Made by a program: the position numbers and the translations under genes
Source of the DNA: Hyaloperonospora brassicae
Taxonomy: Eukaryota; Oomycota; Peronosporomycetes; Peronosporales; Peronosporaceae
DNA length: 64,000 nucleotides
Reading direction: 5' to 3'
Assembly (NCBI GenBank): GCA_947650285.1
Contig: CANTFL010000233.1
Coordinates: 310,001 to 374,000 of the forward strand
The notes under the pieces: generated by a model
Seen by the model: only the letters and a program-made list of their open reading frames with translations
Database searches by the model: none
What the model was told of the DNA's origin: nothing
Shown here: positions 1-49,987 of the stretch, one piece after another
Position numbering within the stretch: position 1 is the stretch's first letter
Layout of the letters: each line of letters opens with the position of its first letter

Positions 1-285
1 GATGACAAGTTCGACGTCATCTTCGGGTTGCCTTGGCTCAGGAAATACGAGCCAAGGGTGAGTTGGCAGTATCGATAGGTAACGCTACCTGCTACTTGTT
101 TCTCAGATAATCACCTGACGAATATCTTGGAACGCCCACATTCACGTGGGTGTACTACGAGTGAGTGCGATGGCCTCACTTGTGGTACGGTCGTTAGCAC
201 GACTGTACAAGAACACAATGTAGATGATCACTACATTGTGGAGAAAGCTCTCCCAGATCCTGTGGAAGTGTTTCCCAGGAGGTAA
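1..285 (+). pseudogene. Retrotransposon protease, C-terminal part and linker (copy A)
   Basis: The first codons give the end of an aspartic protease fold: the run DDKFDVIFGLPWLRKY resembles the conserved segment after the flap in Ty3/gypsy proteases. The frame stops at a TAG at 76-78, where copy B has a sense codon (TCC). The linker to the reverse transcriptase then continues to TAA at 283-285, and the RT frame is reached only by a -1 change. Copy B has the same TAA and the same frame change. The active-site half of the protease lies outside the window. Confidence 0.7.
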
Positions 286-1548
286 TCGAGACACTGAATG
301 TCTTGGTTAATGACGGATCAAGCGTAGGCGCTTATACGCTTGATCTGATTGTGCCTCCGAAGTTGAATTCGGAGATAACTCAGTTGCCAACGCTAGAACC
401 GAAACGGTTCTTGCGTGGTCTGCATAGTGGCAAAGTCAAGCAGATCTGTGTACTCGTCGCGGAGGACGAGTACGTAACCAATATTCGATCGGCGACGGTG
501 TTTACTGGGACCGAGAGGGTTCTCAGCAGTTCATCGATGGACGAAAGTGTCATCGATGAGAAGACTCGGATTGAGAGATATGAATCTCAATACTGGAAGT
601 CGCTTCAGGCAAATCCTTTGTATAAAGATTTGATCGAATTCAAGGACGTGCTCCCTGAATCCGTACCTCGCGAGTTGCCTAAGGACAAAGGCACTCGACA
701 CGAGATCGAGCTCAAACAGGGCTCGAAGCACTGTGTCATGAAGCAGTGGCCACTGCCTCGTGAACAAGTGATAGCAATCGACAAGCTCTTTGCCGATCGC
801 TTAGCAGCGGGCCATGTGAGGGAATCAACATCCCCTCACAGCTCTCCGACCTTCTGTGTGCGAAAGGCCACAGGAGGGTGGCGGATAGTGCACGCATTCA
901 ACAAATTGAATGCTGCAACGGTACCGGCTCAGACGCCGATACCGAGGAAGGACGTAATCATAGATGGTGTGTCAAAGAGTACCATCTTTTCGTCCATGGA
1001 TCTGATGGACGGATTCTATCAGATCCTCATGCGTGAACGGGATGATCCGTACACAGCAGTGAGCACCCCCAGCGGTATGCTGTAGGAGTGGCTAGTGATG
1101 CCACAGGGGCTGAGTAATGCCCCTGCAATATTCAACAGATGTCGTTACAAATCTGTTAAGACCGGTGTGGGACTTCGCACTGAGTTATTTCGACGATGTG
1201 TTCGTCCATAGTCGGGCTATGGACGGAAAGACGGACGTTGAAGTTCACCGATCTCACGTTCGTCAGGTTCTTCAACTTATGCGCAAGAATAAGTTGTACG
1301 CCAACCTCAAGAAGTGTATATTTGCAGCCAGCGAAATACCACTTCTTGGGTGCATCATCGGCAAACACGGTGTCCGCCCTGATCCCGAAAAGATCAAGGC
1401 GATCACCAACTGGCCAGTGCTAGCCGATGTCAAGGGACTTCGAAAGTTCCTTGGTTTAGCGGCGTACTTGCACATGTACTCGCGCAATTACGCCGAGATG
1501 ACTGTTCATCTTTCTCGCTTGCTCAAGAAAAACGTGAAGTGGTTATAA
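286..1548 (+). pseudogene. Reverse transcriptase of copy A, broken
   Basis: Residues from about nucleotide 303 include the RT fingers and palm of a Ty3/gypsy enzyme, with SPTFCVRKATGGWRIVHAFN and the first catalytic segment FSSMDLMDGFYQI near 990-1025. The second catalytic motif, YFDD, is encoded at about 1186-1197. A TAG at 1083-1085 sits where relatives have tryptophan, and copy B shares it. A one-base insertion at about 1144, absent from B, shifts the frame within AIFNRC. The frame then runs to a TAA at 1546-1548 after NVKWL, again shared with B and probably replacing a tryptophan codon. Family assignment is firm; the exact ancestral codons are inferred. Confidence 0.85.
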
Positions 1549-2793
1549 AACGCTGACTGTCAGCGTTCCTTTGAAGGTATCAAAAAAACTTGATACAATC
1601 TCTCATCTTGGCGATTGAAGATCAGGACAGACCTTTTCATGTGGTCTGTGACACCAGCAATATTGCTATCGGATGTGCATTGATGCAGTATGACACAGAC
1701 GGCGCAGAGCGCGTCGTCTGCTATCAATCGCGTCAGCTGCAACCAGCTGAACGCAATTACCCAGTGCATGACAAGGAACTACTTGCCATAAAGTATGCAC
1801 TGACTAAGTTCCGGGTCTGTCTCTTAAGAGATAGACCGTACATCGTCGATTCGAACCATGCGTCATTACGCACGGCCGTAAACAGCCCACACCTCTCGCA
1901 AAGAATGGCGAGGTGGCTGTCTTTCTTCGCGGAGTATAACTTCTCCGTGGAGTATAAACCGGGACGACTCAATGTCGTCGCTGATGCGCTTTCGCGCCGG
2001 CCCGATTTCGAGCCGGACGCACAATCCAACAGTGAGGATAAGCCCACTGTTGCGACACTGTCAGTCAGTGTCCCGTCGTCAAGTTTACTTGACGACGTAC
2101 GAAAGGCATACGCGGAAGATAAGGATCTTCTGCGATTGATGGATCATCTGGTGAATCCATCCAGTAAATCCATGAGGGATTTACCGGCTTTGTACCTATC
2201 CTCATCGGATCGGTATATTACACGCAACGGATTGCTGTACTATACAGCTGTTGCCGACGACACCCCTCGTGTCGTCGTACCCGCTCATCATGACTTGCGT
2301 TTGCGCATCATGTACGAGTGTCACGATGCCCCAACAAGCGGCCATCGTGGAAGGGAAAAGACTTACCTCACGGTAAGTCGTGACTTTTACTGGCCCCGCA
2401 TGTATCAGTTTGTTTGCAAGTACATACGTGCTTGCGAGGTTTGTCAACGGGTGAAGCCTAGTCCTTCATCCCGTGCGCCATTGCAGCCTCTGCCTGTTCC
2501 GACAGAGTGCTGGCAGTCCGTTTCAATGGACTTCGTCTTCGGGTTTCCCGAAGACGCTCACAAGAATAATGGTATTCTTGTGTTTGTTGACCGATTCAGC
2601 AAGATGGTACATCTTGCTGCTGTCCCTGAGTCGATCAAGGCTCAAGGTTGTGCTCGTGTCTTTCTAGACACGGTCTTCAGACTCCACGAATTACCCCGTG
2701 AACTCGTATCCGACCGTGACCCTCGGTTCACGGCGGCATTTTGGCAAACCGTGTTCCGTACTCTCGGAACACGATTGAAGATGTCCACTTCTG
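1549..2793 (+). pseudogene. RNase H and integrase of copy A, up to the duplication
   Basis: After a -1 frame change within an A-run at about 1582-1588 the frame reads the RNase H domain (FHVVCDTSNIAIGCALMQY, then DKELLAIKYAL and the RNase H motif region altered to DSNHASLRTAVN, where copy B keeps TDHASLRTAVN). A spacer follows, then the integrase HHCC zinc module (HHDL near 2287, CEVCQRVK near 2434) and the catalytic core, with the first aspartate in SMDFVFGFP, the second in SDRDPRF, and the glutamate in TDGQTERANRVLEEIL just past 2800. The spacer codons at 2054-2276 contain seven perfect hairpins. The frame is lost at the 77-bp duplication that follows. Confidence 0.88.
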
Positions 2794-2947
2794 ACCATCC
2801 AGAAACAGATGGTCAGACGGAACGTGCGAACCGTGTCCTCGAAGAGATCCTTCGAGGATATGTCCACTCAACCATCCAGAAACAGATGGTCAGACGGAAC
2901 GTGCGAACCGTGTCCTCGAAGAGATCCTTCGAGGATATGTCCACTCG
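2794..2947 (+). repeat. 77-bp direct tandem duplication inside integrase of copy A
   Basis: The segment 2794-2870 is repeated exactly at 2871-2947, beginning with ACCATCCAGAAACAG in each copy. Copy B has a single unit. Because 77 is not a multiple of three, the duplication shifts the integrase frame just after the catalytic glutamate. Each unit begins at the left arm of a small inverted repeat (CCATC...GATGG), so slippage or template switching at a hairpin is a plausible origin. Confidence 0.95.
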
Positions 2948-4317
2948 TTTCCGAGTTGGAGCGAATTCCTACCCATGGTGGAATTCCCCACCAATAATTC
3001 GGTGCATGCTTCCACACAGCACACACCGTTCTTCGTGAATGGCTTACGCCATCCACGAGTGCCCACCCTTATAGAGTGTGACTCTTGGATAAGGGGGGAG
3101 GGACTCGCTCGAGCAAAATTTGTTTTGGCTCTTGCTCATCACGTGTCGACGTTAACGTCGTCACGTATGATGCCGATGTCGATCAAGTCGACATCGATGA
3201 AGAAGATCATCTCAATAATAGCGACGACGCTATTATTGATTCGGATGATGACGACGATGCTGGTATATTTAGCATCGTCAACGATTATGTCAGCGAGGAA
3301 GAAGACAACCTCGCTGAAGAATAGAGCAATCTCTTAGCAGTGCGCACGAAGCGCACTGCCAGACAAAACAAAGAGTCAGCAGAGAACTTCCTGCTGACTC
3401 GAGAAGCGGTAGTCCGTTTCGTTCAGGACTCCATCGCAAATTCGGTGGACCGTCAGAAACGGAACGCAGACAAGAATGGAAGAGCAAATGTTCTTTCATT
3501 TAAGGTTAACGACCTAGTACTACTGTCTACGGTAAACTTACCTGGACATGCAGTCACTAGTGTCGGCAGTAGTAAACTACTGCCGAAGTACATTGGGCCA
3601 TTTCGAGTGTTGCATCGCAAGGGCAATGCATACACACTCGAATTGCCACGTAGGATGCGCACGCATCCTACGTTTTACGTGGGGAGGCTTAGGTCGTACT
3701 GTCGGTACGAGCCTTCTTCTTCCGATGAAGATATCCCCCACGTTCAAGAACATACATCAAGTTCTTGCGTTCGCGCTCCAGACGATCCGTCTGGTCGCGC
3801 AGATATGATACCTCGGAACTCAACCGAGATATCTCCCCGCGAGCTGTCGCCAGCTCGCCGAATAGGGAGCGGACATCCCGCTCGACCTGAAGCTGCGCTG
3901 TGGCATAATCGGCGCGATCCCTCGCCCGATCAGCCTCGTGACCCTTGCGGTTCTTCCGCACGGTATCGGTCAAAGCGTAGCGCCGGTCGCGCTCGTGCTT
4001 CAAGTCATCGCGCAATTCATCGATTGCGCGATCCATCTCGTAAGGGTCGAGATGGTGAGCTGGATCATCTGGAGGAGGTCTTTCCTCCTCCACCACATCC
4101 TTTGGTGGATGCGCACGGTGATCAACGCTTTCTAGTGGAGCGTATCTTGAATCACCGTGACGATTCAGGATCAAGGACGAGCTACCTCGTCCAGTGGCGG
4201 GGGTATCCACCCTCTTGGAACAGCTGGGAGCCCCGCTCTCAGCTGTTGATGGATGTTGAAGGTCTCGTCCGCCAGTATGACGAGACCCATCTGATGAGTC
4301 CTGTGGCCCATCGGTAA
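2948..4317 (+). pseudogene. Integrase C-terminal region, GPF module and chromodomain of copy A
   Basis: After the duplication the remaining pol sequence continues in two frames. It includes PFFVNGLRHPR, an acidic linker rich in aspartate (about 3150-3320), a TAG at 3322-3324 shared with copy B, and then an uninterrupted stretch from 3340 to the TAA at 4315. This holds the integrase tail with KYIGPFRVLHRKGNAYTLEL (GPY/F-like module, near 3583-3640), a long arginine- and serine-rich linker, and a chromodomain at about 4120-4300 with [27 protein letters not shown] and LVRQYDETH. Chromodomains in this position can direct integration to marked chromatin in related elements. The linker and chromodomain overlap the antisense frame 3689-5299. 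Confidence 0.85.
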
Positions 4318-5299
4318 ACACGCGCCCTAGGCGCTTGTAGACGGATTGAAAGTTTGCAATCGCGTCACGCATCTCAGCCGAGATGTGTGCCCTTCCCCAG
4401 GGCGAATCTAGGGAATACACATCCCTATGTGCACGCTGCGAGTTGTCAACACAGCTCGCACAAGGGTCTCCCCATGTGAGGCAAGGAATGCCTGTCTCAC
4501 TCGATAAACAATGCAACCGGTACCTAGCACCGGTTGGCGTTCGCCTTTCGAACCTGAGGCGTGTCGCCTCAAGCTTCTTGAGCCACCCTTCTCGTCCAAA
4601 ATTCTTTACGTTTTGGACGAAGGCGTTCCACGCTGTCAAAAGCGAGTTCTTGTCACGCTTTTGTTTGCCATTGTACCATCGATGCCTAAAGAAGGCATCG
4701 AGATAAAAGTATTCCTCAGCGCGAAAGTTCTTCGCGCTGGAGCTCAAGCCGTGAAGCTCGGTTGCATCGAATAAGGGTATTCGATGGTGCTGGCCTGTCT
4801 CGTGAGACAGGCTATCGATGAGCCGTTCGGGCAAACGCCACGGCTTCAATTCATCACGCTTCACAGTGGTACCTGTTTCGGTACCACGGCTTACAGAATG
4901 ACGACGGCTCGCGCCATCGTCATCACGCTCGTGTGAAGACGCACGAGACGGTGGTGGTGAGGAATTCTATTCCTCACCACCCTTATCATCATCATCATCA
5001 CTGCCGAACAGACTGTGATGCAAATCACGAGTCAGTTCGTTCGGCAGTGGTCTTGGCGAATACTGAGGCGTCGCCGGTGAGCGAGACGCCTCTGGAGCAT
5101 TGCCCGAGTCAGACACGTCTGACTCGCCAGAGTAGATGACCTCTACATTTGAGTCATCGTGCGCACGCGGTGTGATACCGCGTGCACCTGCAACACCTGT
5201 TGCTGCAGGCGAAGAAGGGGCAGCAGACGACGAATCGTCTGCCGCAGAGGCTGGCACAGCACCGGGCTGTGTGGGTCTTGAGTCACCTCGCATAGACAT
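3689..5299 (-). pseudogene. Antisense accessory frame of copy A, one internal TAG
   Basis: On the strand opposite to the element a frame of 537 codons including the terminal stop runs from an ATG at 5299 to a stop at 3689, broken only by a TAG at 4967-4969 (codon 111). I recognise no family. Residues 1-110 are serine-, alanine- and aspartate-rich and probably disordered. The middle looks globular, with AEEYFYLDAFFRHRWYNG, many aromatic and basic residues and a cysteine cluster around CLTWGDPCASC. The end is a charged coiled coil (RDDLKHERDRRYAL to LERERKNLMYVLE) and finishes RKKKARTDSTT. It overlaps the sense chromodomain and linker. Copy B carries the same frame at 5959-7533. The ATG lies in the loop of a perfect inverted repeat (5286-5314). 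It could be a real antisense gene or partly a by-product of palindrome-rich DNA. Confidence 0.6.
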
Positions 5300-5314
5300 G
5301 TTAACTATGCGAGG
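5286..5314 (-). promoter_or_regulatory. Inverted repeat around the antisense start codon (copy A)
   Basis: Ten-base arms CCTCGCATAG (5286-5295) and CTATGCGAGG (5305-5314) enclose a 9-nt loop that contains the antisense ATG (complement of 5297-5299). Copy B has the same arrangement at 5945-5971. A role in translation is only inferred; the repeat is also one of many in this element. Confidence 0.45.
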
Positions 5315-5418
5315 TCAAGCGGAAAGTGAATGGAACGGACCCAACAAGTGCTCCTTGTCCCAATGGTGGCCAACGGGTGGCCTCCATATTTTCGATAGTC
5401 ACACGGTGACTATCAGTT

Positions 5419-5427
5419 AAGGGGGGG
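5419..5427 (+). other. Polypurine tract of copy A
   Basis: The run AAGGGGGGG followed by TGA lies immediately before the LTR start TGTAAC at 5431. This is the expected place for the primer of plus-strand synthesis. The corresponding tract of copy B is on the other strand at 5831-5842. Confidence 0.75.
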
Positions 5428-5430
5428 TGA

Positions 5431-5822
5431 TGTAACGGGGCAGCCCGTTACATGAAATTGTCACTTTAAGGAAAGTGACAATAAAGAATATAAAGATGGA
5501 TATTCTTTAAAACAATATCACCAAAGTGGTGATATTGAAGGGTCGACCAAAGGGTCTGTTCATTGGTTGATATCGTGATGATATCAACCCACCAATCGCC
5601 GCAAGACGCGCGCAATGAGTGGTGACGAGACGTCACCATACATCCAGTTATATTAGTATAGTTAAACTAAGTCAAACAGAGAGACAGTAGTTTAAAGATT
5701 TAATTATATTAATATAACAGTTCTACTTTTACCCTACCTACGCTTCCTCGCTTGCCACGTGTACGTCCGTCGGGGCACCCAAAACCCTTGCGTTAAGTTA
5801 CGCAAGGGTGTGCCCCGTTACA
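5431..5822 (+). repeat. Central complete LTR (392 bp), 3' LTR of copy A
   Basis: The LTR starts TGTAACGGGG and ends CCCCGTTACA, an inverted terminal pair with the canonical TG...CA. It is nearly identical to the inverted LTR at 12712-13078, which points to recent activity. Internally it consists of consecutive hairpins, including one at its left tip and a nested pair at its right end (outer arms 5771-5778 with 5810-5817; inner arms 5785-5793 with 5800-5808). Only the six bases GTTACA (5823-5828) separate it from the internal sequence of copy B, so copy B has no separate 3' LTR. Confidence 0.92.
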
Positions 5823-5958
5823 GTTACATCACCCCTCCCTTATCTGATAGTCACCGTGTGACTATCGATAATCAGTGGAAACCCGTTGGACACCAGTGGG
5901 ACAGGGAGCACTTGTTTGGTCATACCCATTCACTCCTGACCTTTCTCGCATAGTTAAC

Positions 5959-7533
5959 ATGTCTATGCGAGGTGATTCAAAGACCACACAGCCTACTGCT
6001 GTGCCAGCCTCTGCGGCAGACGCTTCGTCGTCTACTGCTTGTTCTCCGTCTGCAGCAGAAGGTGCTGCAGATGCACGCGGTATCGCACCACGTGCACATG
6101 ATGACATTGGCAATGAGGTCATCAATTATGGAGAGTCAGGCGTGCCTGACTCGCGCAACGTTCCAGAGGCATCCCGATCACCGGTAGTGCCTCATCGTTC
6201 GTCAAGAGCACTGTCGAACTAGCGGACTCGTGAAATGCATCACAGTCTGTTCGGCAGTGATGATGAACTCTATGGTTAGGACTACTATACCTCATCAGTA
6301 TCAACTCGTGCTTCCCCGCAAGAGCGTGATGACGATGGCGAGAGCCATCGTCATTCTGTAAGCCGTGGTACCGAAACAGGTACCACATTGAAGCGTGGTG
6401 AGCTCAAGCCGTGGCACTTGCCCGACCAGCTCATCGATAGCCTGTCTCACGAGACAAGCCAGCACCATCGAGTTCCATTATTCGATTCAACTGAGCTTCA
6501 TGGTTTAGGACCCAGCGCGAGAAACTTTCGCGCTGAAGAATACTTTTATCTCGATGCCTTCTTTAGGCATCGATGGTACAATGGCAAACAAAAGCGTGAC
6601 AAGAACTCGCTTTTGACAGCGTGGAACGCCTTCGTCCAAGACGTAAAGAATTTTGGACGAGAAGGGTGGCTCAAGAAGCTTGAGGCGACACGCCTCAGGT
6701 TCGAAAGGCGAACGCCAACCGGTGCTAGGTACCGGTTGCATTGTTTATCGAGTGAGACAGGCATTCCTTGCCTCACTTGGGGTGACCCTTGTGCGAGCTG
6801 TGTCTACAACTCGCAACGTGCACATAGGGATGTGTATTCCCTAGATTCGCCCTGGGGAAGGGCACACATCTCGGCTGAGATGCGTGACGCGATTGCAAAC
6901 TTGCAATCCGTCTACAAGCGCCTAGGGCGCGTGTTTACCGATGGGCCACAGGACTCATCAGATGGGTCTCGTCATACTGGCGGACGAGACCTTCAACATC
7001 CATCAACAGCTGAGAGCGGGGCTCCCAGCTGTTCCAAGAGGGTGGATACCCACGCCACCGGACGAGGTAACTCGTCCTTGATTCTGAATCGCCACAATGG
7101 TTCAAGATACGCTCCACAAGAAAGCGTTGACCACCGTGGGAGTCCACCAGTGGTTCCGGTGGCGGTGGAAAGACAAGGCCCGGCTCAGCCGCCGGGCCTG
7201 CACGAGACTTTGGGTAACCACGAGCGTTACCTGACCGAGCTGAGGGAGGACGTCGATCACGAATATGATCGTCGACACGCCTTGCTGTCGGGTGTGCGAC
7301 GTCTTCGATCCGATCGGGAGAAGGACCGATCGGAATTCGCGTTCGGTCAGCTTAAGAGTGAACGCGAGAAGCATCGTTTGCGCGACGAGCTAGAGACGGA
7401 TCGTCGCGAGACCGCGTCGCTGAAGGACCAACTTTAGTGTTTGGTCCGTGATCACAAGAATATGTTGGGGATTCTTGAGCGCGCCGGTTATCTCCGTTCT
7501 CGCAAGAGGCCTCGTACCGACAGTACGGTCTGA
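5959..7533 (+). pseudogene. Antisense accessory frame of copy B, three internal TAG codons
   Basis: This frame is antisense to copy B and equivalent to 5299-3689 in A. From ATG 5959 to TGA 7531-7533 it has 525 codons, interrupted only by TAG at 6220, 6277 and 7435. Domains match those of A: an alanine/serine-rich start, a middle region almost identical to A (AEEYFYLDAFFRHRWYNG, CLTWGDPCASC), and a charged coiled-coil end that passes the last TAG and finishes LRSRKRPRTDSTV, aligned with KKKARTDSTT in A. In the coiled-coil part the nucleotide sequences of A and B differ strongly while the heptad-like charged pattern and the C-terminal motif are kept. Function unknown. An intact longer open stretch runs 6388-7437. 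Confidence 0.58.
6935..7147 (-). pseudogene. Chromodomain of copy B, separated from the rest of pol
   Basis: The translation contains [36 protein letters not shown] and [17 protein letters not shown], the same chromodomain as in A. In B the sense frame leading into it is closed by a stop at about 7352, within a linker whose sequence is unrelated to that of A, so the chromodomain would not be made as part of pol without frame changes. The antisense frame crosses this region on the other strand. Confidence 0.8.
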
Positions 7534-8260
7534 GTCGCTCCACGTAAAACGTAGGATTCGTGCGCATCCTACGTAGAAATTTGATCGTGTATGCATTGCC
7601 CTTGCGATGCAACACTCGAAATGGCCCAATGTACTTCGGCAGTAGTTTACTACTGCCGACACTAGTGACTGCATGTCCAGGTAAGTTTACCGTAGACAGT
7701 AGTACTAGGTCGTTAACCTTAAATGAAAGAACATTTGCTCTTCCATTCTTGTCTGCGTTCCGTTTCTGGCGGTCCACCGCATTTGCGATGGAGTCCTGAG
7801 CGAAACGGACTACCGCCTCTCGAGTCAGCCAGAAGTTCTCTGCTGACTCTTTGTTTTGTCTGGCAGTGCGCTTCGTGCGCACTGCTAAGAGATTGCTCTA
7901 TTCTTCAGCGAGGTTGTCTTCTTCCTCGCTGACATAATCGTTGACGATGCTAAATATACCAGCATCGTCGTCATTATCCGGGTCAGTAATAGCGTCGCCG
8001 CTATTATTGAGGTGAGTTTCTTCATCGATGTCGACCAGATCGACATCGGCATCATACGTGACGACGTTGGCGTCGACACGTGATGAGCAAGAGCCAAAAC
8101 AAATTTTGCTCGAGCGAGCCCCCCCCCTGAATCAAGAGGCACTCTGTATGAGGTCGAGAATACGTGGGTGGCGTAAGCCATTCACGAAGAACGGTGTATG
8201 CGTCGTGGACGCATGCACGAAGTCGTTGATGGCAAACTCAACCATCGGCAAGCACTCACT
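7352..8260 (-). pseudogene. Integrase C-terminal region and GPF module of copy B
   Basis: Reading from 8260 downward, the sequence shows PFFVNGLRHP, an acidic linker that ends with a TAG equivalent to that at 3322 in A, then SAENFWLTREAVVRFAQDS and KYIGPFRVLHRKGNAYTI. The frame ends at 7352, before the chromodomain. The integrase tail is close to that of A up to the GPF module. Beyond it the linker diverges abruptly. Confidence 0.8.
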
Positions 8261-9583
8261 TCAATGTAAAAAGGAGTGGACGTATCGACGAAGAATTTCT
8301 TCGAGGACACGGTTCGCACGTTCTGTCTGACCATCTGTTTCTGGATGGTCAGAAGTGGACATCTTCAATCGTGTTCCGAGAGTACGGAACACGGTTTGCC
8401 AAAATGCCGCCGTGAACCGAGGTTCACGGTCGGATACGAGTTCACGGGGTAATTCGTGGAGTCTGAAGACCGTGTCTAGAAAGACACGAGCACAACCTTG
8501 AGCCTTGATCGACTTAGGGACAGCAGCAAGATGTACCATCTTGCTGAATCGGTCAACAAACACAAGAATACCATTATTCTTGTGAGCGTCTTCGGGAAAC
8601 CCGAAGACGAAGTCCATTGAAACGGACTGCCATCACTCTGCCGGGACCAGCAGAGGTTGTAACGGTGCACGGGATGAAGAGCTAGGCTTTACTCGTTGAT
8701 AGACCTCGCAAGCACGTATGTACTTGCAAACAAACTGATACATGCGGGGCCAGTAAAAGTCACGACTTACCGTGAGGTAAGTCTTTTCCCTTCCACGATG
8801 GCCGCTTGTTGGGGCATCGTGACACTCGTACATGATGCGCAAACGCAAGTCATGATGAGCGGGTACGACGACACGAGGGGTGTCGTCGGCAACAGCTGTA
8901 TAGTACAGCAATCCGTTGCGTGTAATATACCGATCCGATGAGGATAGGTACAAAGCCGGTAAATCCCTCATGGATTTACTGGATGGATTCAACAGATGAT
9001 CCATCAATCGCAGAAGATCCTTATCTTCCGCGTATGCCTTTCGTACGTCGTCAAGTAAACTTGACGACGGGACACTGACTGACAGTGTCGCAACAGTGGG
9101 CTTATCCTCACTGTTGGATTGTGCGTCCGGCTCGAAATCGGGCCGGCGCGAAAGCGCATCAGCGACGACATTGAGTCGTCCCGGTTTATACTCCACGGAG
9201 AAGTTATACTCCGCGAAGAAAGACAGCCACCTCGCCATTCTTTGCGAGAGGTGTGGACTGTTTACGGCCGTGCGTAGTGACGCATGGTCCGTGTAGACAA
9301 CAAACGGTCTATCTCTCAAGAGACAGACCCGGAACTTAGTCAGTGCATACTTTATGGCAAGTAGTTCCTTGTCATGCACTGGGTAATTGCGTTCAGCTGG
9401 TTGCAGCTGACGCGATTGATATCAGACGACGCGCTCTGCGCCGTCTGTGTCATACTGCATCAATGCACATCCGATAGCAATATTGCTGGTGTCACAGACC
9501 ACATGAAAAGGTCTGTCCTGATCTTCAATCGCCAAGATGGGAGATTGTATCAAGTTTTTTTGATACCTTCAAAGGAACGCTGA
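8261..9583 (-). pseudogene. RNase H and integrase of copy B
   Basis: The RNase H part keeps FVVYTDHASLRTAVN and the spacer matches copy A. A TGA at about 9421 replaces a cysteine codon of A within RVVCYQSRQ. The integrase keeps the core residues (SMDFVFGFP, SDREPRF, TDGQTERANRVLEEIL), but the zinc module reads CEVYQRVK instead of CEVCQRVK, which removes one metal ligand. The frame ends at 8261. There is no 77-bp duplication here. Confidence 0.87.
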
Positions 9584-9594
9584 CAGTCAGCGTT

Positions 9595-10839
9595 TTATAA
9601 CCACTTCACGTTTTTCTTGAGCAAGCGAGAAAGATGAACAGTCATCTCGGCGTAATTGCGCGAGTACATGTGCAAGTACGCCGCTAAACCAAGGAACTTT
9701 CGAAGTCCCTTGACATCGGCTAGCACTGGCCAGTTGGTGATCGCCTTGATCTTTTCGGGATCAGGGCGTACACCGTGTTTGCCGATGATGCACCCAAGAA
9801 GTGGTATTTCGCTGGCTGCAAATATACACTTTTTGAGGTTGGCATACAACTTATGCTTGCGCATAAGTTGAAGAACCTTACGGACGTGAGTTCGGTGGAC
9901 TTCAACGTCCCTCCTTCCATCCATAGCCCGGCTATGGACGAACACATCATCGAAATAACTCAGTGCGAAATCCCACACCGGTCTTAACAGATTTGTAAGA
10001 CATCTGTTGAATATTGCAGGGGCATTACTCAGCCCCTGTGGCATCACTAGCCACTCCTACAGCATACCGCTGGGGGTGCTCACTGCTGTGTACGGATCAT
10101 CCCGTTCACGCATGAGGATCTGATAGAATCCGTCCATCAGATCCATGGACGAAAAGATGGTACTCTTTGACACACCATCTATGATTACGTCCTTCCTCGG
10201 TATCGGCGTCTGAGCCGGTACCGTTGCAGCATTCAATTTGTTGAATGCGTGCACTATCCGCCACCCTCCTGTGGCCTTTCGCACACAGAAGGTCGGAGAG
10301 CTGTGAGGGGATGTTGATTCCCTCACATGGCCCGCTGCTAAGCGATCGGCAAAGAGCTTGTCGATTGCTATCACTTGTTCACGAGGCAGTGGCCACTGCT
10401 TCATGACACAGTGCTTCGAGCCCTGTTTGAGCTCGATCTCGTGTCGAGTGCCTTTGTCCTTAGGCAACTCGCGAGGTACGGATTCAGGGAGCACGTCCTT
10501 GAATTCGATCAAATCTTTATACAAAGGATTTGCCTGAAGCGACTTCCAGTATTGAGATTCATATCTCTCAATCCGATTCTTCTCATCGATGACACTTTCG
10601 TCCATCGATGAACTGCTGAGAACCCTCTCGGTCCCAGTAAACACCGTCGCCGATCGAATATTGGTTACGTACTCGTCCTCCGCGACGAGTACACAGATCT
10701 GCTTGACTTTGCCACTATGCAGACCACGCAAGAACCGTTTCGGTTCTAGCGTTGGCAACTGAGTTATCTCCGAATTCAACTTCGGAGGCACAATCAGATC
10801 AAGCGTATAAGCGCCTACGCTTGATCCGTCATTAACCAA
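9595..10839 (-). pseudogene. Reverse transcriptase of copy B
   Basis: The domain is the same as in A, with FSSMDLMDGFYQI and SYFDDVFVHSR as catalytic segments. The TAG after TPSGML (about 10055) and the TAA after NVKWL (9595) are shared with A at 1083 and 1546. The one-base insertion of A is absent, so NAPAIFNRCLTNLLRPVWDF reads through here. Without recoding or suppression the enzyme would be made in pieces. Confidence 0.88.
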
Positions 10840-10856
10840 GACATTCAGTGTCTCGA

Positions 10857-11462
10857 TTACCTCCTGGGAAACACTTCCACAGGATCTGGGAGAGCTTTCT
10901 CCACAATGTAGTGATCATCTACATTGTGTTCTTGTACAGTCGTGCTAACGACCGTACCACAAGTGAGGCCATCGCACTCACTCGTAGTACACCCACGCGC
11001 TTGTGGACGCTCCATGACGTTCATCAGATGGCTATCTGATGAACAAGCAGCAGGCATCTTCACGGATCGATGCTGCCAGCTCACCCTTGGCTCGTACTTT
11101 CTGAGCCAAGGTAATCCCAGGATGACATCAAATTTGTCATCCAGATCTAGCACGATGAAGTCATCATCGTACTGTTCGCCCTCTAACGTGTAGTGGATTC
11201 CTACTACACGTTTCTCAACGGTTATCGATGCGCCTGTTGCAAGGCGCACCGTCATCCTTGTGAGGGGAATGTCGCGCTCAACGAACTTGAGCCTACGACC
11301 CTCTAGTGACTGGCGACGAACAAAGTTGTTCGACGCCCCACAGTCTACTAGGGCACAAAGAGACAAATTATTTGTCGCTTCCAACTTCAAGGTTATGAGC
11401 GAAACGTCATCACCAGGTGCAGAGACACACAATGATTGTGTATCTGAAGCAACTTTCGTCAA
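10857..11462 (-). pseudogene. Retropepsin-like protease region of copy B
   Basis: The frame holds ALVDCGASNNFVRRQSLEG, the aspartic protease active-site segment with DCGA in place of the usual D(S/T)GA, followed by VVGIHYTLEG, FIVLDLDDKFDVILGLPWL and a linker to the reverse transcriptase. It is open over about 200 residues, so this is the best preserved domain of the copy. It ends with the stop that also closes the frame in A (283). The connection to RT needs a -1 change of frame. Confidence 0.85.
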
Positions 11463-11474
11463 GAGATTTGCAAA

Positions 11475-12667
11475 TTATCTTGAGGTTGCTGGATCAGTAG
11501 GGCGCTCCGCCCCTACTGACCCCGACCATTTTTTTGATGGTCCGTCTCGCTGTTGCGGCTTCGCAACAGCGCTGGGCCCACGCCCATTGCCCTTTCTGGC
11601 GAATGGTCGTCCATTTCGATCAGTACTGTTTGGTACTGGGCGTGGAGCACTACACTCGTATGCGTAGTGCCCTAACTTCTGACAGCGATTGCACCTCTGC
11701 AATCGCTTGTTGTTTGAAGAGCGAGGTCTCTCGTTCTCAACATGGCAGAGGTCCATTGGTTCTGGACCTCCGATCTCTTGTCGTCTCGGTGGACGATAAG
11801 AGTTTGAGCTAGCATGAGCCTGTCTCATGCTAAAGTCTTCTTGTTCCGCGGCTGATATCGCTTCTTCAAGCGTACTCAGCTCAAGGAGGAACAGATGGCT
11901 CCTGACGGGCCCTTCTGCGAGCCCTTTCATGAACACCATAATCAACGTGTGTTCATGTACTGGGTTAGCAGTTATACTACTCGCAAGGAGTCGTATATGT
12001 TGTGCGTAAGCGTGCACATCACGCTTACCCTGCTTGAGTTTCAGGAGCTCTGAACGAGCCCTGAACTCAGCCCGTGGCGGCTTAAACGTTTGTCTAAGCC
12101 GGGACTTGAATTCATCTAGCGACCTAAACACGTTTGGGTCGCTACTCTCGAGCCCCAGGGACTAAGTTTTGGCACGCCCTGCCAAGTGGGTATGAGCAAA
12201 TGTGAGTTTCATTTGCTCATCTTCGACGCGATGAGCCCTTAGGGCTCTGTCGAGTTCGACAAACCATAGTAACAGGGAGTCCTCCGGGACTCCACTGTAC
12301 TTGGAGATGTCAAATTTCATGACTTCAGGACGACGCGCATGCGCCGTCCCGCCCACAGCAGCATGGAATTGCTACTGTCTCAACAGCTCCGTCTGTTGAG
12401 CACCGAGTTCTCTCAACTGCTCGGCCTGTTGAGAGCCTTGCTGGTGAAGCAAGGCTACTTTTTTCTTTCGGCGACAAGTTCACTTTGGATGAACTTGGCT
12501 ATAGCGGCATGTTGTTGGTCTCTGTCTAGAGACTCCAACATGGCGCTAACGACGAGTTCGCCTACGGTAGAAATCATTCGTTCTACCGCACCCCATTCGA
12601 TGTCACTCAAATGGGTAAACCTTTCACGCGTGGCGTGAAAGGTGTCTTCTTCATCCAACATGTTCAT
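11475..12667 (-). pseudogene. Gag of copy B, broken by two stops and a frame change
   Basis: The sequence starts MNMLDEEDTFHATRERFTHL and has a helical N-terminal part. A frame change in an A-run near 12455 and a TAG near 12366 precede the capsid-like part (KFDISKYSGVPEDSLLLW). A second TAG (about 12162) sits after HLAGRAKT, where relatives have tryptophan. The remaining 218-residue frame 12131-11475 carries FRSLDEFKSRLRQTF and a CCHC zinc knuckle, CNRCQKLGHYAYEC, followed by a basic tail. The knuckle is typical of Ty3/gypsy nucleocapsid. Inverted repeats are dense here too (for example 12192-12220 and 12652-12675). Confidence 0.86.
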
Positions 12668-12693
12668 GTTGGATGATTTAATCCTTGGAAGGA

Positions 12694-12709
12694 CTACAAA
12701 GTGCTACCA
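12694..12709 (-). other. Primer binding site of copy B
   Basis: Two bases inside the LTR end (12712) the minus strand reads TGGTAGCACTTTGTAG. A tract starting TGG at this place is the usual primer binding site, complementary to the 3' end of a tRNA. I cannot name the tRNA. Confidence 0.6.
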
Positions 12710-12711
12710 GG

Positions 12712-13078
12712 TGTAACGGGGCACACCCTTGCGTAACTTAACGCAAGGGTTTTGGGTGCCCCGACGAACGTACACGTGGCAAGCGAGGAAGCGTAGGTAG
12801 GGTAAAAGTAGAACTGTTATATTAATATAATTAAATCTTTAAACTACTGTCTCTCTGTTTGACTTAGTTTAACTATACTAATATAACTGGATGTATGGTG
12901 ACGTCTCGTCACCACTCATTGCGCGCGTCTTGCGGCGATTGGTGGGTTGATATCATCACGATATCAACCAATGAACAGACCCTTTGGTCGACCCTTCAAT
13001 ATCACCACTTTGGTGATATTGTTTAAAGAATATCCATCTTTATATTCTTTATTGTCACTTTCCTTATAGTGACAATTT
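12712..13078 (-). repeat. 5' LTR of copy B, outer end missing
   Basis: In minus orientation this LTR ends CCCCGTTACA at 12712 and differs from the central LTR by only a few bases. The first part of the LTR (TGTAACGGGG and the following bases) is missing. The sequence instead turns directly into LTR E at about 13078. Confidence 0.9.
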
Positions 13079-13475
13079 GACAATAAAGAATATTACGTCG
13101 AATGTTCTTTCAACAATATCACAAAGGATGATGATATTGTTGGGATGACCGAAGGGTCTACTCATTGATTGATATTGTGATGATATCAACCCACCAATCG
13201 CTGCTAGACGCGCGCAATGGGTGGTGAGTAGACGTCATCATACGTTTAGTTAGATAAATATAATTAAGTCAGGACAACAGAGATTCAAGGAGTGATAGGA
13301 CTTAATTATATTAATACAGTTTTACCTTTACCGAGAGACTAGTCTGACTACTTTGTCTCCTTTCCTTCCTCTGTGTTTCCTTAAAACACCTAGCAGGGCA
13401 CTGTCGACCACTGTCGTCAGTGAAAGTATACTCCGTACTGGTCAACCAGTACGTAGTCAACAGTGCCCCATTACA
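13079..13475 (+). repeat. Diverged LTR E of the same family, head to head with the LTR of B
   Basis: The sequence runs parallel to the central LTR: GACAATAAAGAATATT at its start, a block with arms flanking ATATC, GCGCGCAATG near 13213, a TTAATTATATTAATA block, and a terminal GTGCCCCATTACA at 13463-13475. Many positions differ and the terminal hairpin is entirely different in sequence, so this is an older or separate subfamily. Its first bases are missing like those of the LTR of B, and the two meet inside a palindrome at 13046-13094. No internal element sequence follows, so it is solo on that side. Confidence 0.82.
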
Positions 13476-33400: not shown

Positions 33401-36250
33401 CCACAACGCGAAGTATTATTAGAATATGGTAGCCGGAAGAGGGCACTGAGCGTAAATACATACCGTTATATATATAATGCAAACAGATCAATAACAAAGA
33501 GTCGTTTCCAGTACAAATTTGTAATGGATACAACACAATTATTGAGTCATCCTAACTTTTGATTTAACCCCAATAAAACATCTAAGTAAACTCATGCTAC
33601 CTAGCATGGATTCACAATATTTTTCACTCTATGGGTGATTTACACGCGTCTACACCTTTTATTGTTCGTAATTTCCCCCACAGATATCTGAAACGATCAT
33701 TAAGGTTTCGTCCTGTAAATAACGCCATATTATGTGGCTTCTTAAATTTTTATCTTGACCGCTGCTGTTCAGATCACACGATAAATACCAAGTACACATC
33801 AAATTGCAAAAGAATATGAAATGCTATAATAAAATGGCGCTTGGCCAATTTAAAAAGATGCACACGACATTGCCAAATGTGCATGTATACTATATGCACT
33901 GTCGATCATTCAAGATTGCTATAGATTATAGAGTAAAGTCACTGGATATAAATTATACAAGTTCTTGGGCTGATGAATGCCATATTTTGACGCGATTAAT
34001 ATGATAACCTCAAATTACTGTGTTTGAAGTTCCTTTTTTTCTTTTATTATTCTTTTGCATTTTTTAGTCTACAAAATCCCGGCAAAGTGACGGGAAATGC
34101 TCTTTAATACCGGCGAAGTAGGCGATTGCAAGATACTAAGTAATATCAATGTATATAGTACAGCTACAGCATGCAATGTGTAGATATCGGCGGCAGAGAT
34201 TGTCCGACACGTTTTGAACAAATTTAAATAATAATTTTAAAAATCACTATTGAATCTTTTGTTCTTTTTTTGTTAAATTTATGGCACCTATTAAAGCAAC
34301 TATCATACATTTGGTATATTACTCAACTTCTGCCGCTTTTGCAAAAAGTAATTTTTTTGTTTTTTAAGACGCTTTTGTTTTTCAACCCAAAAAATGATTT
34401 TTCGTTCATTTCCTGGTCCACTTTGACGTTTATGAGGTATATTTGGCATAGCACACAAATTCCTCTTCCAGGTCTTTTTAATTATATATCAATTTCTGCT
34501 AAAAGTGAGCACTACAGCACTAAATTAGAGCCTGCATTTTAAGATATCTAGGAATATATATTGTTTTAAGCAAACAATATTAGATGTATCAATAAAACAA
34601 TAATTGCATAGATGATCATTTTATTTCGTTTAGTCAAAGATTTGATTTCAAGATCTTCGCATTCATTACACGTACAGTATACAATCTAAAATATGTTAAT
34701 AATTTTAGCGGTACGGTATTCCCACAATTTCATTTAAATCGTGTGGCATTTACTTAAATCAGTAATAAATAATGAAAACAATTTAGAGAAAGATACAGAG
34801 AAAATACAATACACACTTATATTGATACGTCTGTAGTTTTTTTATTTATAAACGAACCCATGCCTACATAGAAAATAAAATCTTGTTTACGTAAAAGATG
34901 GATATTGTCACATAAAGTATAAATAATTGAACGTATCTGCAGTAGTGGTTTGGGTTTCATAATACACTGAATTATGATCATTGAAGAAACAAATCCCACT
35001 TTTTTAACGATCACGACATCTATAAAGATTGGTAATCAACCCTTTCTCGACAAGATATAGCTTTTTAATTGATTATATATCTCCTTTAGTGTTGATGCCA
35101 TCCAGAAGGACCACGCCAAACAAAAATATATTAACGTATCACGAACACTTTAAAAATTCATCTCCGCTTGTAAATTAATGGCTGATAACGCCATTGTGGC
35201 CAAAGTATGTCTGTTTTTCTTTATCTACACCTCAAAGCAAAATCGAGGAAAATACAAAGAGAGTTTTATAGAAAGCAAAGTTAGTCTGTTCAGTAATTAC
35301 TGACGGTGTTATCATTTACAAAAGGAAATATATTTGTAACTGCAAACTTAATGATATACATCATTGCGTTTTGATTCTTATTGATATTGTAAAATTCTGT
35401 TGATGTGACACCACAGAATGATAATTTTTTATAATGTCGTAAAATACGATACGTGCGAAAAAGCGCATCTCATTAAATTTAAGAGTTACAGCGTATACTA
35501 CATAATTACAGATCTTTAGGTAAACGCAAGATAGCGAATTTTGCGCGTATATAAATTATTAATGGATTACTTGGTACCAGACCCATATTTTAGTCGTATA
35601 TATCAGTGGCTCTCATAATCTGGCAGATATAGTCGCACTTAGTGTGAATTAAAACAAAATTTATAATAAACAGTTATATTTACGAGTCGTTAAAGATGGC
35701 TTTCTATCGCCTTTTTCACTTAAGACGATAATAGGGATCATACCCCCGTAACATCTAAAATCATATACTAATTCTTTTCCTAAACGATTCTGTCAATTTC
35801 ATGAATCAATCCCTGAAGGCTTCAGCTGTTTGCTGGAGTATTCTGACTTTCCTCATCTCATTCCTGTGGAACAGTAGCCATTATAGTGCTTCGCGGTGAT
35901 GTCTAATGAAGTTTATGTAACGTTGCTGATGATCACGGCGACGCCCGATCAATACCGGGCCGCTTTACAATAGTTCATAGTGCGTGAGCCCGCCGAAGCG
36001 AATCGGCCAATGTTGGCTCCCTTGAGCACCTCCCACTGAGAGGTCATTAAGATAGAGACATATACGTACTTCGGTGATGGTCCAGACCGTTCCATCTTTA
36101 TCCCTGGACATATATGAGGTCAATGTTGCGCTAGTGTCAAGGTTAGTGTGGCGCTCCGACAATTAAGGTTCATTTACTGCTGTCTCTAATCGAACGAAAA
36201 GACATGTAATGGGCCCTTGGCGAGCTCGTCAAAATTTAGTCGGCTTTTCA
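27466..36250. other. Long AT-rich stretch without recognisable genes
   Basis: About 8.8 kb in which frequent stops close every frame within at most about 100 codons. I recognise no protein motif, tRNA or LTR. The base composition is far more AT-rich than the flanking islands. It may be old, heavily mutated repeat DNA or a special chromosomal domain. The boundaries are judged by eye. Confidence 0.6.
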
Positions 36251-36309
36251 CACGCTTTATAGTATCCAGCGCAAATTACTACTGGCCTTAAAACCCCCAA
36301 GATGAGGCG

Positions 36310-36525
36310 CGCCTTCGTGCAGATACTATGACAGGTAATTTGACGATGCGTGACTTCGCGCAAAAAATACAAACTTTACTCAAAAACATCACACGGCCAA
36401 CCGACATGGCGTCTCAAATTTATGTCTTCGTATTTGGAATTCAAAAGGGCAGAAACGTTATCGCCTCATGCGTGATGGACCGAATAATTATGAAGAGAGG
36501 ATTGTACCGTCGCGCTTGGTAAAGA
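36310..36525 (+). pseudogene. Probable retrotransposon gag fragment
   Basis: The short frame contains TMRDFAQKIQTLLKNITRPT followed by DMASQIYVFVFGIQKG, which resembles the gag segment in which oomycete Ty3/gypsy proteins have a conserved M-x-D/T-x-x-x-x-V-x-x-F-x-x-G-M pattern before the zinc-knuckle region. No zinc knuckle or pol follows. The assignment is tentative because only about 40 residues match the pattern. Confidence 0.45.
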
Positions 36526-38014
36526 TCAGGCAGCCGCGTTCTTGTAATTTCACGTGGCGTCGTGAAGACGCGTACTTTTGTTCCACACCCTATCAATACT
36601 GATGCAATCGACGCATCGCGTGGTCTCAGCAACTTATATAGCCGCGACTTTTGTAGTTAAAACAAGATAAGATGTTTTAATTTCAGCAACATAGGCTGTC
36701 GTACGTCTGTACGCTTATCACTTGCGACGATAACGTAAATGCACAGCTGTACCACGTTGCGATGCTGTGGCGTCAATAGCACCGCCAAAAAACGAGCGGA
36801 AATGGTAGACGCGGGGCGCTGTACCAACAGCAATAGAATCCCGAGTACTTAGTTAGAAGCTCGAATTTTTCAGTTTTAGTGATACTTACTCAATTTATTG
36901 CCACCGTCATGCGTGACGATTCGAGATTATGTATTTACAGTTTTCTATTTGATTAAGCAAAAAGATCACTCCAACCGTTGTTTAATTCGGGTGCATCCAA
37001 CAACTTTTTAAAAGTATAGTGTTTGTTTCTTTCCCCGTCTATTCTGACGATTCAATATAGGCCAGGCGACATTGTTGTCAAACTTGCGACTAAAGAACCA
37101 CATCATGTCCTGCATTAAACATTGTTCTGTCTTATTTATTCGACATTTAAATAACAATGATGCATTTCGATTGAAGTTATGACTATGTAATTGATTGCAT
37201 TTTTACGAATTCCGTGGCCTTCACGGTATCAGCTGGCTGTAGATTGTCCAACTAGGACCGTTCAACGACGAAGCTGGTACGACGGGAGTAACGTGTTCAG
37301 TTATGTAAGAGTTGCGTCATCTGATTAACCTCGCATCTGGGTCCTAAACATAATCGCCACGACTAGACATAAGCACCGAGAGTGCAATGGATTCCTGTGC
37401 TCGGTATGTCTGTTCAGACTGAAAGAGGTACACATTGAAAATCTTGAACAGAAATGTCTGTAAACACAGACCTTAGTTGTGTAGAAGCCCCCGATCAATA
37501 TTGAGTCGGTAGAACAGTAGTTTCATATTATTAACGAGGTCTTTTAACAGGGGGTTCTGATTCCCAACAAGATGTCTAACAGGAGCTCCCTTTTACTCCG
37601 AAATCGGTCAAACAGAGGTTTCTGATTCCTGGCAGGCGGCCGAAAAGGGGATTTTGTGTACAGCACACCGAACGAGCAGATGCTCGTAATATATAATCGA
37701 GGCGGTCGACCACGAGGCCCCAAGTTTTGTCTTCGATATTAAGCGGACTGTGGATCCGATTGTGAACGTCTTGATGGAGACTAAGTATTCGGGACAAAAG
37801 GGAGGTTTATCAATTTTCATCACATTGACGTGCCATCCTCGTTTAGCGGCGTAATACGAAAGAAAATTCCAAGCTCAAGATAGAAGCACGTCAATTGCCG
37901 AGGCAACGAAAGCAGTGTTAAATTGGTGACGGAGATGGTATCGTCTTGACGGATCCGTATGACCGCTCAAATACGTGTAGTAGTGTCAAAATCGCCGAGA
38001 AAACATCAATGTAT
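36526..38014. other. Stretch without supported genes left of element C
   Basis: Less AT-rich than the preceding stretch. Short frames exist on both strands (for example 37576-37823, -) but none has a motif I can assign. Old transposon debris is likely. Confidence 0.4.
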
Positions 38015-41860: not shown

Positions 41861-42400
41861 TTGCAGGCCACTTCCGAGTTTTCAGGTCGGCAACTCGTCC
41901 ACTGTTTCTTCGTGTAATTGCATCACCTCGAAGCAATTATTGCTGACTCGATCGCGATCGAACTCTTGCAGCAAGGCCCTTCAGTTCAATTCGACCTCAT
42001 CTTAATAAGTCGAATCAACCGATTCTTTCCTTTACACCAAATACTGGCGCTACACTCTGCCAAAACGGGTCTGTTTGCCGGATCGCACATCCAATATCTT
42101 CTCGACTTCAAATTAATCTTCATCCAATGTGCCCTCCAGCTATATTCCGGCAGCAGAAATTCGTCAAAATCAAAGCGATCCGCCTCCTCAACGTTCAACA
42201 AGTTTTTAGGCCGATCCGTGAAGGTGTTCACCCGCTTAAGCTTGGATATATGTACCAACGGGAATAATCGATACGGTGTATTCGAGATCTCCAACCGTAC
42301 TGCGTGTCTCCCGTAAAGTTCCTTTACCCGGAATGGCCCATGCCACATATGTGCCAGCTTTCGGGCGTATCTTCTTTCACTCGATCCAAATGGACCCACA
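41861..42400 (-). pseudogene. Integrase tail and chromodomain region of element C
   Basis: The frame 42399-41986 reads KLAHMWHGPFRVKELYGRHA, RLEISNTPYRLFPLVHISKL and DRFDFDEFLLPEYSW, the post-integrase GPF-type module and linker of Ty3/gypsy elements. In shifted frames further on are EVEKILDVRSGKQTRFG-like and DRVSNNRFEVMQLHEE-like segments, the start and end of a chromodomain-type region. Frame changes separate these pieces. Confidence 0.75.
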
Positions 42401-43400: not shown

Positions 43401-43759
43401 CGAACGCATATTTTCACTTCATTGACACCCAACTTCGTTATGTCCCCGATCCGATATTCCTTCAGGTTGGCGATACCCTTCTCTTCTTCCTGTGCTTGCT
43501 TAATTCTCTCGATTCAGACCTGCCGAACGAACTCGTCTTGCCGCACGTCAGGATATCACCGGCCCCTTACGGCAGAACTAGTGACGGCAGATATATTCAC
43601 GACCCGATCGACACTTTTAAGTGTCTGCGACTCATCCAACCGATTCAATCAACCTAAAATCTGAGGATCTTGATCAGATTAGGCGATCCAGCCTTGCTCT
43701 TTTTGCAAATATTTGCTTGCCAGTCGATCGGCACTCTGATTTCTCTTCTCCATTATATG

Positions 43760-44120: not shown

Positions 44121-44199
44121 TACTAAAAGTATGTTACGGATGTTTCTGAGGGGTGATCGCGATCAATGTCTCGTCAACATCTTCTCGCGGCATGATGCT

Positions 44200-49986: not shown

Positions 49987-49987
49987 T

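What the first reader, a model, noticed from the sequence alone, without database searches (positions are those of the whole stretch)
1..13078. Both gypsy copies are tiled end to end with short perfect inverted repeats
Seen directly: along copies A and B perfect inverted repeats with arms of 6-13 bp and loops mostly of 2-12 nt follow one another every few tens of bases, through LTRs, gag, pol, linkers and the antisense frame. Examples (arm/arm): 316-326/335-345; 1203-1211/1217-1225; 2075-2084/2087-2096; 3213-3223/3228-3238; 3648-3659/3662-3673; 4592-4601/4611-4620; 4953-4965/4969-4981; 12192-12202/12210-12220; 12652-12662/12665-12675. In the RNase H-integrase spacer alone seven occur within 2054-2276. 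The PLC gene and element C show nothing of this density by eye. Inference: the RNA or single-stranded cDNA would be a string of hairpins. Causes could be selection for RNA structure (packaging, stability, control of small RNA processing), or a mutational process in which reverse transcriptase template switching turns near-palindromes into perfect ones. I know of no described element with this property.
Basis: partly seen in the sequence, partly recalled or inferred. Interest (0 to 1): 0.92.

Follow-up and report, generated by a model that had tools for sequence, protein, structure and literature searches.

The report
Retrotransposons tiled with perfect hairpins
Four families of Gypsy jumping genes in a downy-mildew-like oomycete are filled with short, mostly flawless hairpins whose size differs from family to family and which, in the best-studied family, seem to be kept by selection only while the element copies itself, a pattern that ordinary RNA folding does not explain.

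Summary
All nine listed arm pairs are exact. Perfect inverted repeats (arm >=7, loop 2-12) number 77 in A and 94 in B, against 3.3 and 4.1 in dinucleotide shuffles; 13/kb against 1.0/kb in 13401-64000. Codon-preserving shuffles do not explain it. In this oomycete genome all four Gypsy families sampled carry it, each with its own hairpin size; five of six Copia groups do not, and the sixth has an LTR octamer array. Stems are strictly Watson-Crick: in F2-F4 the wobble excess is about a tenth of that in structured ssRNA phages. In family F4, private mutations strike arms freely, but inherited variants are halved in arms, also at third codon positions (p=9e-6 against the rest), and hairpins are kept between subfamilies twice as often as wide-loop control repeats (p=3.6e-5). 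This favours selection on pairing during the replication cycle over a template-switch mutation bias; F1 does not confirm it against control arms. That each family's Gag reads its own hairpins as dispersed packaging signals is inference, and which nucleic acid folds is unproven.

The parts
1..5822 (+). Gypsy copy A (family F1), cut by the window start; 57 perfect inverted repeats with arm >=8, loop 2-12
   Evidence: the match of the other F1 copies to A's 3' part ends within a few bases of 5822
5823..13078 (-). Gypsy copy B (family F1), inverted, tail to tail with A; 68 perfect inverted repeats with arm >=8, loop 2-12; no 3' LTR of its own next to A
5455..5822 (+). 3' LTR of A (99.2% to B's LTR); hairpins run through it
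12712..13078 (-). 5' LTR of B
303..1085 (+). A: open frame with weak RT match (PF00078, 27 bits, below the cut-off of 29.6); 6 hairpins arm >=8 against 0.25 in codon-preserving shuffles
1590..3038 (+). A: RNase H - H2C2 - integrase frame; 12 hairpins arm >=8 against 0.47
3340..4317 (+). A: Tf2-1-like SH3 and chromodomain frame
2054..2277 (.). cluster of seven perfect hairpins, arms 6-11, in the RNase H - integrase spacer
3648..3673 (.). hairpin, arm 12, loop 2
4953..4981 (.). hairpin, arm 13, loop 3 (longest in A at loops 2-12)
10857..11462 (-). B: aspartyl protease frame
11475..12131 (-). B: Gag with CCHC knuckle

Best explanation
Four related Gypsy families of this oomycete carry dozens to more than a hundred separate, mostly perfect Watson-Crick hairpins spread at random over the element. 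The variant pattern in family F4 says that selection keeps them while the element replicates and not after insertion; for the other families this is suggested, not shown. Each family has its own hairpin size, so what reads them is most likely encoded by the element itself. I think they act in the genomic RNA as dispersed recognition sites for the element's own Gag/nucleocapsid, so that each family packages its own RNA in a cell where several families coexist.
For: Excess over codon-preserving shuffles in long open frames: F3 33 v 1.38, F2 17 v 1.45 (arm >=8), F4 97 v 19.9 (arm 5-6). Family-specific sizes. Five of six Copia groups at chance; the sixth (L066/L067) is mostly explained by an LTR octamer array. 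F4, 15 copies: private variants hit arms as often as control arms (.206 v .209) but inherited variants half as often (.067 v .137, p=3e-4); third codon positions 20/128 in arms v 73/228 in control arms v 138/370 elsewhere (arms v the rest p=9e-6). F4 subfamilies share 38 of 63 hairpins against 54 of 181 control repeats (p=3.6e-5). Hairpins kept across F1/F2/F3 27 of 156 v 16 of 220 (p=.003, directions not independent), some by double compensatory change. Loop bases differ by family and strand: F1 loops A 33%, F4 loops T 33%.
Against: RNA recognition should tolerate some G-U; none is seen in F2-F4, and inherited G-U variants are no commoner than A-C ones (8 v 6; control 47 v 38). No common loop motif was found. 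Folding excess does not differ between strands; only F4 has a sense-strand loop signal (p=.004), absent for arm 5-6 alone. In F1 the depletion of inherited variants is not beyond that of control arms (12/1356 v 5/519) and private variants are also fewer (OR 0.60). Within nine F4 copies of one subfamily the contrast with control arms is not significant (6/418 v 17/621, p=.2). Second codon positions in F4 show no difference. F2 and F3 have too few inherited variants (5 and 14 sites). No Gag-binding data.
Confidence: 0.4

Rival explanations
1. Mutation bias: during reverse transcription the nascent strand snaps back, copies itself for a family-typical length and returns, turning near-palindromes into perfect ones (templated, quasi-palindrome correction).
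For: Perfect complementarity without wobble, sharp stem ends, random positions and gain in the active lineage are what copying would give. One F4 gain needs three changes in one arm. In copies A and B single mispairs of both transition kinds are commoner than the rest (internal pairs: A, G-T 50 and A-C 49; B, 72 and 51), as decay of perfect stems would give.
Against: Arms should evolve faster or in concert; in F4 they evolve more slowly and only 1 of 38 shared F4 hairpins has a compensatory change, though one hairpin counted as lost had shifted with two. Amino acids coded by arms are not more derived than elsewhere, with a distant outgroup. Another multi-change gain was synonymous by my reading of its frame.
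Confidence: 0.22
2. Genome-scale ordered RNA structure selected for general reasons (RNA stability, evasion of RNAi or of other RNA sensing), not for a specific reader.
For: Folding z -4.15 in A and -3.69 in B, beyond MS2 (-2.90) in windows of the same size. Phytophthora relatives make small RNAs from transposable elements, with abundant 25/26-nt ones (PMC3804510, passages read).
Against: No G-U excess in F2-F4, little bulged or extended pairing; stem G+C only slightly raised in F1, F2 and F4, though clearly in F3; family-specific size is unexplained.
Confidence: 0.17
3. DNA-level function: cruciforms or dyad sites in cDNA or integrated DNA, which would need Watson-Crick pairs on both strands.
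For: Strict Watson-Crick pairing and about equal G-T and A-C mispairs in F2-F4.
Against: The hairpins listed do not look like one shared site (no motif search was run); in F4 and F2 private mutations hit arms as freely as elsewhere, so any role is before integration, but in F1 they are fewer; loop base composition differs by strand.
Confidence: 0.1
4. Chance, base composition or codon usage.
For: None found.
Against: 5-fold (F4) to 25-fold (A integrase frame) over codon-preserving shuffles, 23-fold over dinucleotide shuffles for A and B at arm >=7; Copia controls at chance.
Confidence: 0.01

Closest known systems
Genome-scale ordered RNA structure (GORS; the concept is recalled) and structured ssRNA phage genomes (MS2, Qbeta, GA, PP7, SP as yardstick)
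   Same: Local folding excess along the RNA, coding and non-coding alike.
   Different: Here stems are mostly perfect and isolated; one-wobble excess relative to all-Watson-Crick excess is 0.01-0.02 in F2-F4 (0.04-0.07 in the old copies A and B, where A-C is about as high) against 0.18-0.21 in the phages; hairpin size is family-specific. Arm >=7 repeats: 2.2/kb in the phages (41 in 18.8 kb, expected 9.6), 13/kb in A and B.
Dispersed packaging signals (Twarock/Stockley model, PMC6281560, passages read)
   Same: Many short stem-loops over the genome, varied in sequence and affinity, that could be read by the coat protein.
   Different: The cases in those passages share a recognition motif (for MS2 (x)xYA in the loop plus a bulged A); here no shared motif was found and stem length is the common feature. 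No search of mine listed a case in an LTR retrotransposon.
Ty1/Ty3 genomic RNA packaging (PMC4974528, passages read)
   Same: LTR retrotransposon RNA selected by Gag NC; the review says that Gag binding sites in Ty1 or Ty3 RNA are not precisely defined.
   Different: No element-wide array of perfect hairpins is mentioned in the passages read.
Quasi-palindrome correction / template-switch mutation (recalled)
   Same: Would create perfect hairpins from imperfect ones.
   Different: Evolution of the arms in F4 is slower, not faster, and rarely compensatory.
Short inverted repeat / cruciform surveys (PMC13155455, passages read)
   Same: Perfect inverted repeats with short spacers, counted genome-wide.
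   Different: That survey uses arm >=10 and spacer up to 8, and mentions TIR transposons and MITEs; its text holds none of 'oomycete', 'Peronospor', 'stramenopile' ('Gypsy' was not looked for).

Membership tests
Ty3/gypsy LTR retrotransposon with chromodomain | RT, RNase H, H2C2 integrase order, LTRs, chromodomain | tested here: met
   Pfam on A and B frames, RT below its cut-off, chromodomain in A; LTR pairs of 328 bp, 98-99% identical, in full-length F3 and F2 copies. The chromodomain was not looked for in F2-F4.
Genome-scale ordered RNA structure | folding energy excess along the whole genome | tested here: met
   mean z -4.15 A, -3.69 B, -2.09 F3, -1.79 F4, -1.16 F2; two window controls 0.07 and -0.16
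Genome-scale ordered RNA structure | G-U pairs tolerated in stems, as in natural RNA helices | tested here: not met
   wobble excess 0.01-0.02 in F2-F4 against 0.18-0.21 in five ssRNA phages (ratios mine); inherited variants
Genome-scale ordered RNA structure | sense strand folds better than antisense | tested here: inconclusive
   no clear difference in 5 of 5 elements (paired t -1.16 to 1.72); the yardstick is weak too (MS2 t -2.11, Qbeta -0.85); loop signal in F4 only
Dispersed packaging signals | multiple stem-loops spread over the genome | tested here: met
Dispersed packaging signals | shared recognition motif | tested here: inconclusive
   family-typical stem length, weak end-pair and loop preferences, no motif seen
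Dispersed packaging signals | binding to the coat protein/Gag and effect on assembly | not testable with these tools
   needs binding assays
Quasi-palindrome template-switch process | arms evolve in concert (many compensatory changes) or faster than surroundings | tested here: not met
   F4:
Quasi-palindrome template-switch process | gains by several changes in one arm at once | tested here: inconclusive
   few multi-change gains; one-sided and two-sided both seen
Functional cruciform DNA | extrusion in supercoiled DNA | not testable with these tools
   needs bench work

The most novel reading that the evidence does not exclude
A retroelement-encoded 'hairpin code': many strictly Watson-Crick hairpins whose stem length, not sequence, is the family-specific signal, written through coding and non-coding sequence alike by selection during replication and read by an element-encoded factor. 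It would be a new form of self/non-self recognition between coexisting retrotransposons.
Probability: 0.3. Interest if true: 0.96.

Novelty: categorically new. Interest (0 to 1): 0.9.

Why it matters
If true, a whole retrotransposon is under a second, structural code laid over its protein code, visible at synonymous sites. It would show that strictly Watson-Crick local pairing, rather than ordinary RNA folding, can be the selected trait. Families in one genome that differ in hairpin size, together with Copia elements that lack it, make the cause directly testable, whether it is Gag recognition, RT behaviour or host defence. In practice, hairpin density might help to tell young from old copies, since diverged copies have fewer hairpins.

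Tried and rejected
Chance, composition and codon usage: rejected by shuffles and by Copia and window controls. Ordinary RNA structure: disfavoured by wobble and extension; the strand test does not decide. Faster-evolving or overwritten coding sequence at arms: not seen, but the outgroup F4 is distant. A Copia family with an apparent excess (L066/L067): the element read in full (L073, that of L067; L066 is 99% alike) has a tandem array of the octamer TGACGTCA in its LTR; besides the array three distinct arm >=8 repeats remain in 8.5 kb, so I do not count it as the same thing. Thermodynamic sense/antisense comparison of whole hairpins: no difference except F4 with 4-bp stems included (mean -0.09 kcal/mol, p=.03, -0.10 with dangling ends, p=.007; shuffled F4 shows -0.06). 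F1, A/B against the main group: fixed differences fall on 19 of 407 arm columns of a main-group copy and 1 of 285 of A, so A/B look like descendants of an unconstrained copy and cannot test selection. F1 inherited-variant test: depleted against everything else (pooled OR 0.35, p=1e-4) but not against control arms. Relatives in viral contigs: 57 pattern matches, none confirmed. Rfam and tRNA scans of the window: nothing. DNA of other oomycetes is not held here, so whether Phytophthora or Peronospora Gypsy elements share this could not be tested; only their proteins were seen.

Limits and rows dropped: F4 repeats with gaps in a subfamily were skipped; repeats classed 'private' (28, 19; 158 among the controls) lie outside the 63 and 181; hairpin and control sets use repeats intact in at least half the copies. 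Forward and reverse comparisons are not independent. F2, F3 and F4 counts over whole elements include both LTRs (F4 parts of them), so LTR hairpins count twice. Of 150 integrase matches listed (capped at 150 scored) 50 were read as loci. The variant tests with 5-7 F1 copies count some inherited variants as private.
Full report
WHAT IS THERE. The nine listed hairpins are exact and the cluster at 2054-2277 is as described. Copy A ends at 5822 with a 368-bp LTR (5455-5822); copy B lies inverted from 13078 to 5823. Pfam gives, over the two copies, protease, a weak RT match, RNase H, H2C2 and integrase, Tf2-1-like SH3 and chromodomain, and Gag with a CCHC knuckle: chromodomain Ty3/gypsy elements. 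The window lies in a 100.6-Mb assembly. Among the 120 proteins listed of 3466 found, the best named relative of the integrase frame is from Peronospora effusa (81%), followed by Phytophthora and Globisporangium, so the host is an oomycete near the downy mildews; the species was not determined.

IS IT MORE THAN CHANCE. Arm >=7, loop 2-12: 77 in A and 94 in B, against 3.3 and 4.1 in 200 dinucleotide shuffles; 13/kb against 1.0/kb in 13401-64000. 36-51 kb has a mild excess of its own (19 v 8.35). The excess is at loops 2-12 and small or absent at wider loops. Codon-preserving shuffles of the long open frames of related families leave it standing: F3 33 v 1.38, F2 17 v 1.45 for arm >=8, F4 97 v 19.9 for arm 5-6.

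HOW FAR IT REACHES. A search for the H2C2 domain listed 150 matches (capped); 50 were read as loci (30, 20). With A and B they fall into four nucleotide families: F1 (A, B, L052-L054, and by DNA search at least 40 copies), F2, F3 (open frame of 1795 aa and near-identical copies, so recently active) and F4. Each has its own hairpin size: F4 arm 5 (129 v 23) and 6 (33 v 6) at loops 2-6, none of 8 or more at these loops; F3 peaks at arm 8 (27 v 0.3); F2 at 8-9; F1 around 9 with loops 2-12. Older, diverged F3 copies (L042, L050) have fewer hairpins than the young ones (1.8 and 0.5 against about 5.7 per kb). Eight Copia loci fall into six groups: five are at chance, and the sixth owes its excess mostly to a tandem octamer in the LTR. 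So, as sampled, it is a Gypsy property, not a host-wide one.

WHAT THE HAIRPINS ARE LIKE. They are mostly isolated: beyond the first mismatch pairing is near chance in F4, F3 and F1 (F2 0.24-0.38), bulged continuation is rare, spacing is close to random (CV 1.0-1.4). Stems with one internal mismatch exist in the old copies A and B (12 and 14, expected 0.2 and 0.5) and not in the F3 and F2 loci tested (0 and 0). The folding excess is large (A z -4.15; MS2 -2.90) and does not differ between strands. Wobble: at internal pairs F4 has WC 618 v 105 background but G-T 48 v 52 and A-C 37 v 47. As a yardstick, five ssRNA phages have a one-wobble excess of 0.18-0.21 relative to the all-Watson-Crick excess (n=5, 6), against 0.021 (F4), 0.013 (F3), 0.016 (F2) and 0.04-0.07 (A, B, where A-C is 0.05-0.06) (my ratios). 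Ends have family preferences (outer G-C 73/149 in F4, 29/48 in F3, 17/26 in F2; closing Y-R 110/149 in F4 but G-C 22/48 and 16/26 in F3 and F2). Because both strands of an inverted repeat have the same stem, only loops and flanks reveal the strand: F1 loops are A-rich and F4 loops T-rich on the sense strand. F4 first mismatches favour types that are stabilising in RNA (recalled Turner rules; 175 v 104, control 1504 v 1307, p=.004), but not for arm 5-6 alone (p=.28) and not in F1-F3. G+C of stems is slightly raised in F4, F2 and F1, clearly in F3 (0.66 v 0.54).

HOW THEY EVOLVE. Control: equally long perfect repeats with wide loops, treated in the same way. F4, 15 copies: private variants hit hairpin arms and control arms alike (.206 and .209); inherited variants .067 v .137 (p=3e-4). 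By codon position, inherited variants in arms, control arms and elsewhere: first 4/137, 24/244, 41/344 (arms v rest p=.002); second 2/124, 2/252, 20/348 (p=.41); third 20/128, 73/228, 138/370 (p=9e-6). Within nine copies of one F4 subfamily: 6/418 v 74/1610 outside (p=.002) but 17/621 in control arms (p=.2). Subfamilies at about 88% identity share 38 of 63 hairpins, control 54 of 181 (p=3.6e-5), with about nine gains and about ten losses in one of them by my reading. Between families at 55-63% nucleotide identity most hairpins are not shared, but more are than in controls (27/156 v 16/220, p=.003), some through double compensatory change, such as the F3 hairpin at ORF position 4405. Against: F1 arms are depleted of inherited variants (pooled OR 0.35) yet not more than control arms (12/1356 v 5/519), and private variants there are also fewer (OR 0.60); F2 and F3 have too little inherited variation. 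Amino acids in hairpin codons are not unusually derived.

INTERPRETATION. Shown: a massive, family-specific excess of strictly Watson-Crick hairpins. Supported in F4: constraint on pairing in the replicating lineage and none after insertion. Inferred: that the RNA folds; that an element-encoded protein reads the hairpins; that it is Gag. The pattern fits dispersed packaging signals in outline (PMC6281560, passages), and Ty1/Ty3 Gag sites are said not to be precisely defined (PMC4974528, passages). The lack of wobble is the main difficulty for any RNA reading. A template-switching RT explains perfection but not the slow, rarely compensatory evolution of the arms.

LITERATURE. Eight searches listed nothing that, by title and start of abstract, describes this; they cover open-access full text only. 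Five papers were looked at by passages, none in full.

Noticed in passing
window 5436-5823: B begins at 5823 with the sequence that lies just before A's 3' LTR, so B lacks its own 3' LTR next to A and the two copies meet tail to tail across A's LTR; origin (insertion or inverted recombination) not resolved.
   Followed up: partly
window 12801-13332: A 532-bp near-palindrome (78%): B's LTR faces a related LTR piece (13078-13332) head to head.
   Followed up: no
L062:1-1973 (C95:302001-303973): A tandem satellite of about 121 bp, copies 97-99% alike, upstream of copy A.
   Followed up: no
L073, reverse strand, 545-619 and 4962-5036: A Copia LTR carries a short array of the perfect octamer TGACGTCA.
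   Followed up: partly
window 3689-4864 (-): A 391-aa antisense open frame overlaps the 3' part of A; the F3, F2 and F4 copies read also have long frames (465, 505, 437 aa stop to stop) on the opposite strand near the 3' end.
   Followed up: no
window 2781-2946: An 89-bp tandem duplication in A that the seven other F1 copies compared, B included, lack.
   Followed up: partly
L061:3309-3667, L059:3422-3754: Tandem repeats inside the long frames of F2 and F3.
   Followed up: no
window 36001-51000: Mild excess of perfect inverted repeats of arm >=7 (19 v 8.35) outside the Gypsy copies.
   Followed up: no
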